Positions 2,877 through 17,524 of a stretch of DNA of 35,646 nt are shown here, piece by piece. Origin of the DNA: a virus; the IMG/VR virus record IMGVR_UViG_3300030382_001019, positions 1 to 35,646 of that record; one strand, 5' to 3'. Made by a program: the position numbers and the translations under genes. Under the pieces are notes generated by a model that saw only the letters and a list, made by a program, of their open reading frames with translations, was not told where the DNA came from and did not search any database. Each line of letters opens with the position of its first letter. Position 1 is the stretch's first letter.

Positions 2877-4799
2877 TTAGTCTCCGAATACAACCATTGA
2901 AACATAGTCTGCATCACTATAACTTGTTTCAGCGTTTAAACTATCTACTCTTGTTTTTGAAGTGGTATTTTGTCCACCTCTATGTCTTGTTTGTGCATTG
3001 TCACCACCTACAGCAACAACGTGATTTGCATTTCCTATAGTTGCTGCATAATTAATTTGTGTTTGACCTGTACCTTCATCAGTAACCGAACTAACACCAA
3101 ATGAATCTTTAATTGCTGTTGTTCCACTTTGATTCCAGAAACACCAGTATGAAGTAGTTTTTTGTTCACCTGCTGCTGCTAAGTTGCTTAAAGATGTATC
3201 TGCACCTCCTGATACAGCAGCCCAAGAATTATCACCTCTAAGGTAAGTAGAACTTGAGGCTGTTCCTGTGGCTGATAGTTCAGCAACACCGATAGCATCA
3301 TCAGCTACTTTTACATTAGTAACAGCATTTGAAGCAAGTGCAGTAGCATCTACAGAACCAGCAGCATAGTGTTCAGCATCTATTGAATCAGCAGCGTAAT
3401 GCTCACTATTAATAGCATCATCTGCTATCTTTGTGCCATCTATAATATCTGCTGCTAAATGTACTCTATCAATTGAACCATCTACATACTGGTCGCTATC
3501 AACTGAGTTAGCACTCATATGTGCTAAATCAATTGCACCTGCTGCAATCTCGTCTGAATCCACAGCATCGTCTGCTAAGTGTTCATTATCAATACTAGCT
3601 GCTGCGTAGTGTTCAGAGTTAATAACATTATCACCAATTTTAGCTGCGGTTACACAATCAGCACTTAAATGGGAAGTGTCTACGCTTCCATCAACTAATT
3701 CTGAAGAGTCAACTGAGTTCGCACCCATAGCTGCTGCATCTACCGAACCTGCTGCAAAGTGGGCTGTGTCTATACTCCCATCTACATATTGAGCCGAATC
3801 AATTGAGTTAGCTGCCATTTTAGCAACTGTAACTTGGGCATCTTGTATGTGTGCGGTTCTTACTGCATCATCAATAATAGCATCTGTGTTTACAGAATTA
3901 GCATTTAAGTGTTCAGCATCTATACTGTCGGCTACTATATGTTCAGAATTTATAACATCATCTGCAATTAAAGCTGCTGTAATAGCGTCTCCTGCTATCT
4001 TAGCTGTTGTTACTTGGGCATCTTGAATATGAGCAGTACGAACAGCATCATCAATAATGGCATCCGTATTAACTGAGTTTGCGTTTAGATGTTCTGCATC
4101 AATACTATCTGCTGCTATATGCTCACTATTAATAACGTCATCACCAATTTTGGCTGCTGTAATTGCATCTGCTGCTATCTTAGCTGTTGTTACTTGTGAG
4201 TCAGCAATGTGTGCTGTGTCGATTGAGCCATCAGCATAATGCTCTGAGTCTATAGCATCGTCAGCAATATGTGCGTTGTCTATACTTCCATCTGTGTAGT
4301 GTTCTGAATCAATAGCGTTATCAGCTATCTTTGCTCCTGTTACTGCATCTGCATTTATCTTTGCTGTCGTAACTGCATTGTCTGATAGTTCTGAAACAGT
4401 AATTGAGTTGGCTGCTAAATCCTCTGCAACAATAACATCAACTCCAATCTTAGCTGAAGTAATAGCGTTATCTGCAATGTGTGCTGTATCAATACTTCCA
4501 TCTACATAATGTTCACTATCAATAGCATCATCGGCTATGTGAGCATTGTCTATACTGCCATCAGTATAATGTTCGCTATCTATTGCATTATCTGCAATCT
4601 TAGCACCAGTAATTACATCAGCAGCTAAATGTGCTGTGGCAATACTTCCATCTACATAATGCTCTGCCCTTATTGAATTATCGTGAAGGACATTATCAAT
4701 GGTAACTTTCTTTGAAGTTCCTCCATCATTAATTAATAATTCTTCAGCACCATCTGTTGCAGTTAATGCTGATAATTCTGATACTTTAGTTGTTGCCAT
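2877..4799 (-). CDS. Repeat-rich tail or head fibre protein (640 aa)
   Basis: Residues about 1-40 form a conserved head (MATTKVSELSALTATDGAEE, then LLINDGGTSKKVTIDNVL), a known type of virion-attachment start in marine phage fibres. From about residue 40 to 510 the protein is a long array of roughly 10- and 20-residue repeats of the form IADDAIDSEHYVDGSIDTAH, with variants such as SEHL, TAKI and DAAAM. These probably form a trimeric beta-helical shaft. The C-terminus (after about residue 515: GTASSSTYLRGDNSWAAVSG, then a small folded tip) is the usual marine phage fibre tip. Within the shaft a 60-residue block is duplicated in tandem (see findings). The gene sits among structural genes after the capsid genes, so it could decorate the head or the tail. 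Receptor binding is inferred from family knowledge. Confidence 0.85.
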   Translation of the reverse strand: MATTKVSELSALTATDGAEELLINDGGTSKKVTIDNVLHDNSIRAEHYVDGSIATAHLAADVITGAKIADNAIDSEHYTDGSIDNAHIADDAIDSEHYVDGSIDTAHIADNAITSAKIGVDVIVAEDLAANSITVSELSDNAVTTAKINADAVTGAKIADNAIDSEHYTDGSIDNAHIADDAIDSEHYADGSIDTAHIADSQVTTAKIAADAITAAKIGDDVINSEHIAADSIDAEHLNANSVNTDAIIDDAVRTAHIQDAQVTTAKIAGDAITAALIADDVINSEHIVADSIDAEHLNANSVNTDAIIDDAVRTAHIQDAQVTVAKMAANSIDSAQYVDGSIDTAHFAAGSVDAAAMGANSVDSSELVDGSVDTSHLSADCVTAAKIGDNVINSEHYAAASIDNEHLADDAVDSDEIAAGAIDLAHMSANSVDSDQYVDGSIDRVHLAADIIDGTKIADDAINSEHYAADSIDAEHYAAGSVDATALASNAVTNVKVADDAIGVAELSATGTASSSTYLRGDNSWAAVSGGADTSLSNLAAAGEQKTTSYWCFWNQSGTTAIKDSFGVSSVTDEGTGQTQINYAATIGNANHVVAVGGDNAQTRHRGGQNTTSKTRVDSLNAETSYSDADYVSMVVFGD

Positions 4800-12557: not shown

Positions 12558-12733
12558 ATTTTGAGAGCCAAATAAATATATGAGGGATTTATAATATCCA
12601 CCCCTCAGAGAAAAAGATTATCTACCAATGAAAAAGAAAAAGAATAATAAAGAAATATAAAAAATGCTCTTTTGCTATGCGTTGATTTTATCCTATAAAT
12701 GGGAAACGCGTTAATATATTTGACTATAAGTTT

Positions 12734-14638: not shown

Positions 14639-15511
14639 TCAAGCTACTTTCTTCTCGCTCTCTTGCAATGACTCAAGAAAATTAACTGACTTGTTCGCCT
14701 GTGCTGACGCTTTAAAAATAAATTTCTTGTCGTTCTTTAAAGTCTTTAACCAACTAGCAATATATTTTTTGTGGTCTGCGTTCACCTCTTGTTGTTCAAT
14801 CCCAAACTTGACCGACTGAAAACAAGCACCCAACTCAGCAATCAATTCCTCAAAGGCATAATCCTCTGAGCCAAATCCACTTCTTAGTTTTCTATTGCAT
14901 CTTGTTTCGTGTCCAGTCCAATGAGTTAACTCATGAAACAAAGTACCATAGTAGCCTTGACTTGCTGTTGAATCTTGAGTGTTAACAAAACTTTCTTTTG
15001 GTGGCATAAGAATTTCATCTTGTGTTGGTCTGTAACAAGCGACTGCACCAGTATGAAAAATCTTTGCACCAGTTTTTGATACCCAATTTTCTGCATCATT
15101 ATGAGAAAAAGTTTTAACTTCTTCTTTGACTGGCTCAACATAACCAACAGTTTGACTCATGTTCCATACTCTATATGTTTTAAGTAATGGAAATCTTAAT
15201 GGGTTTCCCTCTTCATCTGTTTTATTTTTTGACTCAATCATTTTATAAAAAACAATCTCTGTCCAGTTGGTGAACTCATCACTTTTAATTCTAAGGTCTG
15301 CATCTTTGAATTGTTTTAGCGTACCCCAAAATGGGCTTGTCATTTTTTGAAATGAGAGTATGAGAAAATTAATACCACTATAATTTTTCTTACTCACCAT
15401 ATTAATAGGCATTTCAGAATCCCCAACCCATTGCTTTTTCCAATCTGTTCCATGCTCTGAAACTGTATCAAAAAAATCTTGTGTTATTTTTTCATAAATT
15501 TTATTTTCCAT
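14639..15511 (-). CDS. ArdC-like antirestriction protein (ssDNA-binding domain plus zincin metallopeptidase)
   Basis: The product is 290 aa. Residues 1-125 match the ArdC N-terminal (DUF1738-type) domain: QDFFDTVSEHGTDWKKQW, then NYSGINFLILSF and the typical YRVWNMSQT near 113-121. Residues about 130-290 form a zincin peptidase domain with HELTH at 193-197, a third ligand-type His at 201, and a downstream acidic helix, YAFEELIAELGA, near 218-229. ArdC proteins protect incoming DNA from host restriction, and the phage copy probably works just after DNA entry (family knowledge). It is alone in its transcription unit, pointed against the early genes, with its own promoter and terminator. A full-length, intact catalytic motif is visible. 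The protease target, if any, is unknown. Confidence 0.88.
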   Translation of the reverse strand: MENKIYEKITQDFFDTVSEHGTDWKKQWVGDSEMPINMVSKKNYSGINFLILSFQKMTSPFWGTLKQFKDADLRIKSDEFTNWTEIVFYKMIESKNKTDEEGNPLRFPLLKTYRVWNMSQTVGYVEPVKEEVKTFSHNDAENWVSKTGAKIFHTGAVACYRPTQDEILMPPKESFVNTQDSTASQGYYGTLFHELTHWTGHETRCNRKLRSGFGSEDYAFEELIAELGACFQSVKFGIEQQEVNADHKKYIASWLKTLKNDKKFIFKASAQANKSVNFLESLQESEKKVA

Positions 15512-16436: not shown

Positions 16437-16465
16437 TTGACAGATGTATAGAACTATGATATACT
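16437..16465 (+). promoter_or_regulatory. Consensus sigma70 promoter
   Basis: TTGACA (16437-16442), a 17-bp spacer, TATACT (16460-16465). It is the best -35/-10 match in the window and fires into the gene at 16498 and the tRNA-like locus. Confidence 0.85.
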
Positions 16466-16497: not shown

Positions 16498-16782
16498 ATG
16501 TATAAAGTAATTCAATTAAGAGATGCTAGAACTCAAGGTTGGTTTGTTGGTTTGGTTGTAGCAGAAGGTAGGAAATGGACAAAGGTTGTTGTGTATGAAT
16601 ATCCTATAAGAGTAAAGAAGATATTAAACACAGAGTCCAAGAACTGGAAACACTTAACAAGGTACGACACACCGAAAGGAATGAAGTACGCAGTTAAAAT
16701 GATTCATGCAATGGCAAAGGAATATTATAGAAAAGAAAAAAATATTCCCAAGTCATTGAAAAAAGTGTATAATGATTATTAG
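16498..16782 (+). CDS. Small basic hypothetical protein (94 aa)
   Basis: This 94-aa basic protein has a beta-rich N-half (GWFVGLVVAEGRKWTKVVVY) that looks like a small SH3- or OB-like barrel, and a helical C-half (KYAVKMIHAMAKEYYRKEKN). The AAGGGAATGAAG region supplies a ribosome site. It follows a consensus promoter and precedes the tRNA-like locus by 7 bp. A nucleic acid-binding role is possible from charge and fold guess only. Confidence 0.65.
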   Translation: MYKVIQLRDARTQGWFVGLVVAEGRKWTKVVVYEYPIRVKKILNTESKNWKHLTRYDTPKGMKYAVKMIHAMAKEYYRKEKNIPKSLKKVYNDY

Positions 16783-16789
16783 ATTATTT

Positions 16790-16932
16790 AGAGATACTGT
16801 AACTCAGCTAGTGGGGAAAGGAGAAAGATATTTCTCATGCAAACTTTCCTGTTACTAGATAAGGAGTATGGTATGAAGTGGGTATACACACAGAAGTACT
16901 AGGTCGGTGGTTCAAGTCCACCCAGTATCTCT
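16790..16932 (+). ncRNA. tRNA-like locus with abnormal interior (pseudo-tRNA, intron-split tRNA, or attP remnant)
   Basis: AGAGATACTG (16790-16799) is a perfect inverted match to CAGTATCTCT (16923-16932), giving a 7-bp acceptor stem (GATACTG/CAGTATC) plus three more pairs. A canonical T-arm sits directly against the 3' acceptor: GGTGG-TTCAAGT-CCACC (16906-16922). The two bases after the 5' acceptor are TA, as at tRNA positions 8-9, and CTCAGCTAGTGG follows, which looks like a D-arm. The interior is wrong: the body is about 138 nt, about 60 nt too long. No 5-bp/7-nt anticodon arm is found. Instead the interior holds nested helices CTAGT/ACTAG, GGAAAG/CTTTCC and GAGAAA/TTTCTC (16808-16858). Canonical tRNA status is rejected. 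Confidence 0.55.
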
Positions 16933-16963
16933 AAGTAATTTTAACCATGAGAAGGAGTCAATT

Positions 16964-17524
16964 ATGACAAGTAAAGCAACAAGAAATATCCAGTCAGTTA
17001 TGCAACAGGCACATGGCATGATGGACACAGTAAAGAAGAACAGTAAAAATCCGTTCTTCAAATCTAACTATGCTGATATCAATATAGTATTAGAAACAAT
17101 CAATCCTGTTTGTGAAACATTAGGGCTTGTAGTTTTTCAAGCACCAAGAATTATAGATGGCAATGATGTTTTGTATACTAAGATATCTTTAGCAGATAAT
17201 CCAAGTGAGTTTTTTGAGGGCGAATTAAGATTGCTATTACCTAGTGCAGATATGCAAAAGCTAGGTTCGGCTGTAACATACGCTCGTCGCTACTCACTTG
17301 TAACTATGTTTAATCTTGAGCAAGAGGATGATGATGGACAGTCAGCAAGTAAACATCCAACTGCTACACAGAAAAGAAACATACAAATCAACAAGGCTAT
17401 GGATGGTTTAGTTGAGGCACACAAAACCAAAGACATAGAAAAGGCAACACAGATTTGGGAGTGGGCAACGGACAACGGACACACCCAAGTGCAAGACAAA
17501 CACATACAACTATTTGGAGAATGA
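16964..17524 (+). CDS. ERF-family single-strand annealing recombinase
   Basis: The ATG at 16964 (MTSKATRNIQSVMQQAHGMM) follows a perfect AAGGAG and gives 186 aa. The upstream in-frame GTG would run into the tRNA-like locus and is rejected. ERF hallmarks are KNSKNPFFKSNYADINIVLE near residue 33 and the signature SAVTYARRYSLVTMFNLEQE near residues 105-125. ERF proteins anneal complementary single strands, allowing genome circularisation or recombination-dependent replication. It works naturally with the SSB-like, NinB and RusA proteins of this operon. The C-terminal 60 residues are helical and divergent, as usual. Confidence 0.9.
   Translation: MTSKATRNIQSVMQQAHGMMDTVKKNSKNPFFKSNYADINIVLETINPVCETLGLVVFQAPRIIDGNDVLYTKISLADNPSEFFEGELRLLLPSADMQKLGSAVTYARRYSLVTMFNLEQEDDDGQSASKHPTATQKRNIQINKAMDGLVEAHKTKDIEKATQIWEWATDNGHTQVQDKHIQLFGE

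What the first reader, a model, noticed from the sequence alone, without database searches (positions are those of the whole stretch)
16790..16932. tRNA-like locus with a perfect acceptor and T-arm but a wrong interior
The first and last ten bases pair fully, the T-arm is canonical and is correctly placed against the acceptor stem, and TA and a D-arm-like stretch follow the 5' acceptor. Yet there are about 60 extra bases, with their own nested stems, and no anticodon arm. It could be a novel structured RNA that mimics a tRNA, a tRNA with an unusual intron in the D-arm/anticodon region, a decayed tRNA, or an integration site carrying a tRNA end. A consensus promoter 350 bp upstream points at it.
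Basis: partly seen in the sequence, partly recalled or inferred. Interest (0 to 1): 0.78.

Follow-up and report, generated by a model that had tools for sequence, protein, structure and literature searches.

The report
tRNA-shaped phage RNA that cannot decode
Some uncharacterised marine phages carry a small structured RNA that keeps the elbow of a transfer RNA but has lost the anticodon and swapped that arm for other modules; it matches no known RNA family, and it may be a decoy or regulator that imitates tRNA during infection.

Summary
Window 16782-16940 (+) encodes a conserved structured RNA: an 18-bp closing helix that contains a 7-bp acceptor, then U8-A9, a 4-bp D-stem with a long extra hairpin, a stem at the anticodon position with a 23-nt loop and no anticodon, and a canonical T-arm. 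A strict tRNA-end descriptor finds only this place in the window (1 of 200 shuffles gives a hit). Eleven distinct copies from IMG/VR show compensatory changes in 26 of 40 pairs. They keep U8, A14, G15, purine 26 and C48. One relative (L016) passes Rfam's tRNA gathering score (39.3 vs 29 bits), so the RNA is probably tRNA-derived.

The anticodon module is swapped between copies (at least four types) and the acceptor has no free CCA end. The element lies before an Erf annealing-protein gene in the window's lineage and before an ssDNA-binding-protein gene in an unrelated T7-like lineage. It is present or absent between close relatives. Unrelated structured RNAs occupy the same slot in sibling phages. 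No copy was found in 84,980 prokaryote genomes (pattern scans) or 50,697 phage records (BLASTN). Intron-bearing tRNA, attP and decay are disfavoured. Best reading: a non-decoding tRNA mimic acting in trans. The structure is shown; the function is inferred.

The parts
16782..16940 (+). whole tRNA-like RNA element (closing helix to closing helix)
   Evidence: R1 covariance-model hit 16781-16941, 189.5 bits, the only one in the genome; covariation
16782..16799 (+). 5' arm of 18-bp closing helix; the inner 7 bases (16793-16799, GATACTG) are the acceptor 5' strand
   Evidence: MFE fold; 11 of 18 pairs with changes on both sides in 11 sequences
16923..16940 (+). 3' arm of closing helix; CAGTATC 16923-16929 is the acceptor 3' strand; no encoded CCA
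16800..16801 (+). U8-A9 equivalent (TA), invariant in 11/11 copies
16802..16867 (+). D-domain: D-stem ACTC 16802-16805 / GAGT 16864-16867, A14-G15 (16806-16807), extra stem CTAGT 16808-16812 / ACTAG 16854-16858 and apical hairpin of variable length
   Evidence: D-stem covaries ACTC/GAGT, GTTC/GAAT, GTTC/GAAC, GCTC/GAGC, TATC/GATA
16868..16901 (+). module at the anticodon position: purine 26, stem TGGTA/TACTA, 23-nt loop with GTG[GGTATACA]CAC hairpin; no anticodon
   Evidence: replaced by other modules in L366/L347, L435, L012
16882..16887 (+). 6-nt palindrome GTATAC in the apical loop (GTCGAC in L016): candidate kissing-loop dimer site, speculative
   Evidence: alignment
16902..16905 (+). variable region GGTC, C48 equivalent at 16905 (G15 and C48 conserved in 11/11)
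16906..16922 (+). T-arm GGTGG-TTCAAGT-CCACC
16964..17524 (+). downstream gene: Erf-like ssDNA annealing protein
   Evidence: PHROG 2324, E 2.9e-30
16498..16782 (+). upstream gene, 94 aa, no PHROG match; its stop codon abuts the element
16437..16465 (+). consensus sigma-70-type promoter upstream of the 94-aa gene
   Evidence: TTGACA-17-TATACT, 11/12
16745..16773 (+). promoter-like TTCCCA-17-TATAAT just upstream of the helix (inferred, weak)
   Evidence: 10/12 match, but 9 promoter-like sites found against 4.9 expected in shuffles

Best explanation
It is a small phage RNA descended from a tRNA and kept by selection, but unable to decode: the tRNA corner (acceptor/T-arm stack, D-stem, U8-A14 and G15-C48 positions) is preserved, the anticodon arm has become a swappable module, and the acceptor is sealed into a 17-19-bp helix. 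It is transcribed in the leader of a DNA-metabolism transcript. Most likely it acts in trans as a tRNA mimic: the constant corner is bound by a tRNA-binding protein (a tRNA-targeting defence nuclease, or a processing or modifying enzyme) and the variable arm sets which one, so that the phage titrates or redirects that protein. Shown: structure, conservation, tRNA ancestry of at least one member, modularity, presence/absence, occurrence in two phage lineages. Inferred: transcription, release from the mRNA, protein binding, and the decoy role.
For: Covariation: 17/40 pairs on an alignment not fitted to the structure (0-3 for slid controls, 0/500 shuffles) and 26/40 with 11 sequences. Core positions TA, AG, R26, C48 in 11/11 and T-loop TTCAANT in 10/11. 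Rfam tRNA model fits L016 end to end at 39.3 bits against a gathering score of 29, with long insertions in the D and anticodon loops. At least four different anticodon-position modules. Present in L355 but absent from close relatives L353, L354, L356. Before erf in one lineage and ssb in another. In L016 it is 425 nt and one small ORF away from erf, so it is not tied to that start codon. tRNA-directed defence and tRNA-based escape are established in phages (PMC11455837, PMC13096335), and a tRNA-like domain of bacterial YrlA has been proposed as a competitive inhibitor of an anticodon nuclease (PMC7790460).
Against: No expression, processing or binding data. It always sits upstream of a ssDNA-binding or annealing gene, which also suits a cis role. 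The long helix would hinder RNase P/CCA maturation, so classical tRNA enzymes may not be the partners. No defence system or host is identified.
Confidence: 0.48

Rival explanations
1. A cis-acting 5' leader element: the cloverleaf with its long helix stabilises the erf/ssb mRNA, or is cut by RNase P/RNase III to separate and regulate the downstream message.
For: Always sense-oriented and upstream of a ssDNA-binding/annealing gene; other bulky closed RNAs occupy the same slot; a promoter-like site ends about 8 nt before the helix in the window.
Against: Close relatives with the same gene and leader lack it; in L016 a second RNA and a small ORF intervene before erf; the anticodon module is exchanged between copies; the ssb leader already has its own conserved pseudoknot near the start codon.
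Confidence: 0.27
2. A mobile or selfish RNA cassette: the sequence spreads between phage leaders by recombination with little benefit to the phage.
For: Clean presence/absence and shared elements between two unrelated phage lineages; a second RNA is also shared by both lineages (92% over 116 nt, L016 and L409).
Against: Compensatory changes in every helix show selection on the folded RNA; no nuclease or transposase was seen linked to it; one convincing copy per record.
Confidence: 0.15
3. A functional tRNA whose D-loop and anticodon-loop inserts are introns.
For: L016 aligns to the tRNA model over its whole length with two insertions.
Against: No U33 or 7-nt loop can be formed; the anticodon arm is a 9-bp stem with a 17-nt loop in L347 and larger in L435; no match to any Rfam family at gathering score; the acceptor is buried in an 18-bp helix; ARAGORN finds nothing.
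Confidence: 0.04
4. attP carrying a host tRNA 3' end, or a decaying tRNA.
For: The T-arm and acceptor 3' half look like an ordinary tRNA 3' end.
Against: No tyrosine integrase in the 11 records searched, while all 14 control genomes ring (many records are fragments); both acceptor strands covary; the 24-base 3' end occurs in no other virus contig than a near-identical one.
Confidence: 0.03

Closest known systems
Canonical tRNA (Rfam RF00005)
   Same: Cloverleaf order, U8, A14, G15, R26, C48, T-arm; L016 scores 39.3 bits over the whole model
   Different: No anticodon loop, D-arm extended by tens of bases, acceptor continued into a 17-19-bp helix, no CCA; the window copy itself scores only 12.6 bits
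Bacterial Y RNA YrlA (tRNA-like domain joined to a long terminal stem)
   Same: tRNA-like module closed by a long helix of the two ends (own knowledge); its tRNA-like domain has been proposed as a competitive inhibitor of an anticodon nuclease (PMC7790460)
   Different: No Ro60/Rsr (TROVE) gene in the 11 records searched; no Rfam hit; different gene context
tmRNA tRNA-like domain
   Same: tRNA-like corner without an anticodon arm (own knowledge)
   Different: A D-stem is present here; no match to the tmRNA model at gathering score (L016 15.8 bits against 47); no tag-coding part seen
GOLLD and ROOL phage RNAs
   Same: Structured RNAs of unknown function carried by phages, which assemble by kissing loops (PMC12286853); a palindromic loop is present here
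   Different: Far larger (many GOLLD RNAs exceed 800 nt), different sequence and structure; no Rfam hit here
Phage tRNAs that resist host anticodon nucleases (e.g. T5 tRNA-Lys against PARIS)
   Same: tRNA-shaped phage RNA with an altered anticodon arm (PMC11455837)
   Different: Those are working tRNAs; this one has no anticodon

Membership tests
tRNA | acceptor, D, anticodon and T stems with U8/A14/G15/C48 and T-loop TTCRA | tested here: met
tRNA | 7-nt anticodon loop with U33 and a readable anticodon | tested here: not met
   23-nt loop TGAAGTGGGTATACACACAGAAG in the window; 17 nt in L347
tRNA | free 3' end able to carry CCA | tested here: not met
   3' strand continues into an 18-bp helix; no encoded CCA; in vivo processing not testable here
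tRNA | covariance-model score above RF00005 gathering | tested here: inconclusive
   L016 met (39.3 bits); window copy 12.6 bits, not met
bacterial Y RNA (YrlA) | encoded with a Ro60/Rsr (TROVE) protein | tested here: not met
   0 of 11 records; control genome Deinobacterium rings; several records are fragments
bacterial Y RNA (YrlA) | Ro-binding motif in the terminal stem | not tested
   no motif model used
tmRNA | match to the tmRNA covariance model and a tag reading frame | tested here: not met
   no hit at gathering score and ARAGORN none; L016 15.8 bits
attP at a tRNA gene | integrase gene on the same phage | tested here: not met
   (several records incomplete)
attP at a tRNA gene | host tRNA with identical 3' end | not tested
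   host unknown; only viral contigs were scanned with the exact 3' end
GOLLD / ROOL / other Rfam phage RNAs | Rfam covariance-model match | tested here: not met

The most novel reading that the evidence does not exclude
Phages use the leaders of ssDNA-binding-protein genes as an expression slot for exchangeable counter-defence RNAs; this family is a tRNA-corner scaffold whose swapped anticodon-position arm (in most copies with a self-complementary loop that could dimerise) decides which tRNA-targeting defence is blocked.
Probability: 0.2. Interest if true: 0.87.

Novelty: new variant of a known kind. Interest (0 to 1): 0.64.

Why it matters
It adds an RNA family, supported by strong covariation and absent from Rfam, to the few known tRNA-derived RNAs that keep the tRNA corner and discard decoding. 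Its modular arm, its occurrence in unrelated phages and the presence of other unknown structured RNAs in the same slot point to a place in phage genomes where accessory RNAs are exchanged, as anti-defence proteins are elsewhere. If the decoy idea holds, RNA-based inhibition of tRNA-targeting immunity becomes directly testable.

Tried and rejected
BLASTN of the locus and of two relatives against 50,697 phage records found only short tRNA-like or unrelated stretches. Two genome-wide pattern scans of 84,980 prokaryote genomes found no member: the first had no hit, the second ten chance matches, one of which (L225) looks by eye like an archaeal tRNA gene with an intron. A D-arm pattern returned only members, one of them new (L435). 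Sarcin-ricin and kink-turn readings of the TGAA/AGAAG internal loop were considered by eye and dropped because the flanking pairs covary as plain helix. Class-wide host searches were not possible from a virus record. The kissing-loop idea is kept only as speculation: the GTATAC to GTCGAC change keeps the palindrome, but one double change is weak evidence.

Full report
OBSERVATION. A strict descriptor of tRNA ends (5-bp T-stem, TTCRANY loop, 7-bp acceptor with at most one G-U, TA after the 5' strand) hits only this place on both strands of the window. Of 200 dinucleotide shuffles one gives a hit at 7 bp and none at 10 bp. The RNA folds at -44.2 kcal/mol, z = -3.0, into a complete four-way cloverleaf. 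The helix that closes it is longer than reported: 18 bp, 16782-16799 with 16923-16940. ARAGORN and Rfam at gathering scores see nothing in the window.

RELATIVES. Erf-protein relatives in IMG/VR showed homologous elements in L009, L014 and L016 and a different one in L012/L013 at the same position; L004, L005, L008, L010 and L011 have none there. A loop pattern added L059, L061 and L062. These belong to another phage lineage (ssDNA-binding protein, primase-helicase, DNA polymerase), whose primase is about 45% identical to Pelagibacter and Roseobacter phages. Following that ssDNA-binding protein gave L347, L349 and L366, and a D-arm pattern gave only members, including L435.

STRUCTURE IS UNDER SELECTION. 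On a MAFFT alignment of seven sequences not fitted to the structure, 92.9% of cells pair and 17 of 40 pairs change on both sides, against 0-3 when partners are slid, and 0 of 500 shuffles reach the observed value. With 11 sequences aligned to the model (which leans towards it) the figures are 96.9%, 26 of 40 and 3-6 for slid controls. Every helix has compensatory pairs. D-stems read ACTC/GAGT, GTTC/GAAT, GTTC/GAAC, GCTC/GAGC and TATC/GATA. L012 is a distant member (26 bits, E 1.4e-4) nested in a longer outer stem; its sister L013 differs by a compensatory T-stem change (GGTGG/CCACC to GTTGG/CCAAC).

tRNA CHARACTER. TA at 8-9, AG at 14-15, a purine at 26 and C at 48 are invariant in 11 of 11, and the T-loop is TTCAANT in 10 of 11; these are the positions of the U8-A14 and G15-C48 tertiary pairs (general knowledge of tRNA). 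The Rfam tRNA model fits L016 over all 71 positions at 39.3 bits, above its gathering score of 29, with long insertions in the D-loop and the anticodon loop. So at least that member is tRNA-derived by a published criterion; the window copy scores only 12.6 bits.

WHAT IS NOT tRNA. There is no 7-nt anticodon loop. The anticodon position carries a 5-bp stem with a TGAA/AGAAG internal loop and a small hairpin in the window type, a 9-bp stem with a 17-nt loop in L347/L366, a much larger domain in L435 and another in L012. The D-arm keeps a conserved second stem, but its apical hairpin varies in length. No CCA is encoded and the 3' strand continues into the long helix; an unpaired A at position 73 occurs in four copies only.

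GENOMIC SETTING. In the window the element lies between a 94-aa gene and an Erf-like ssDNA annealing protein (PHROG 2324, E 2.9e-30). In the second lineage it lies in the leader of an ssDNA-binding protein. L355 has it while its close relatives L353, L354 and L356 do not. In L016 another RNA element and a small ORF separate it from erf, and that second RNA is shared at 92% over 116 nt with L409 of the other lineage. Other ssb leaders hold unrelated structured inserts in the same slot (L399/L400/L385, L402/L407/L408). No tyrosine integrase and no Ro60/TROVE gene was found in 11 records, and no tRNA-model match above cut-off other than the L016 element itself in 16. Several of these records are fragments, so absence is soft.

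MECHANISM. Shown: a folded, selected, tRNA-derived, non-decoding RNA with exchangeable anticodon-position modules, present in two phage lineages. Inferred: it is released or acts as a separate molecule, is bound through its tRNA corner, and the variable arm sets the target. The decoy or counter-defence reading rests on the known role of tRNA-targeting defences and phage tRNAs (PMC11455837, PMC13096335) and on the proposal that a tRNA-like domain of YrlA inhibits an anticodon nuclease (PMC7790460). The main rival is a cis-acting leader; its weakness is presence/absence among close relatives and the separation from erf in L016. Palindromes in the apical loop (GTATAC, GTCGAC, and TCTAGA in L347/L366) suggest kissing dimers, as GOLLD and ROOL RNAs assemble by kissing loops (PMC12286853), but the evidence is thin.

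LIMITS. All copies are metagenomic, the host is unknown and nothing is known of expression. About a dozen distinct loci were found. Metagenome contigs could not be scanned, and search results are limited to the named collections.

Noticed in passing
L346-L425, last ~60 nt before the ssb start codon: Many ssDNA-binding-protein leaders of these T7-like phages end in a hairpin whose loop pairs with a stretch just before the start codon (GAGTCC/GGGCTC, TGAGACC/GGTCTCA, TAAAGACC/GGTCTTTA): a covarying pseudoknot, perhaps translational autoregulation as known for T4 gene 32.
   Followed up: partly
L399, L400, L385 (L399:2160-2440); L402, L407, L408 (L402:2140-2440): Two further structured RNA inserts of about 250 nt in the same ssb-leader slot, closed by long stems (e.g. 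GATTAGAGAAACACTAG/CTAGTGTTTCTCTAATTATT).
   Followed up: partly
L016:2656-2771 and L409:2313-2426: A third RNA-like element, 92% identical over 116 nt, shared by the erf-lineage and ssb-lineage phages, no Rfam match.
   Followed up: partly
L005, before 3001: The 94-aa gene is reduced to its first and last codons, yet AAAGTGTATAATAATTATTAA is retained, consistent with that stretch serving as a -10 promoter element.
   Followed up: no
window 14639-15511 (-): Anti-restriction protein (PHROG 7245, E 5e-65) near the element.
   Followed up: no
L191 near 12560-12680 (+), L204, L214 near 2900-3040 (+), L212: Other odd tRNA-ended loci with long non-standard interiors in unrelated virus contigs, caught by a T-arm pattern; not members by eye.
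   Followed up: no
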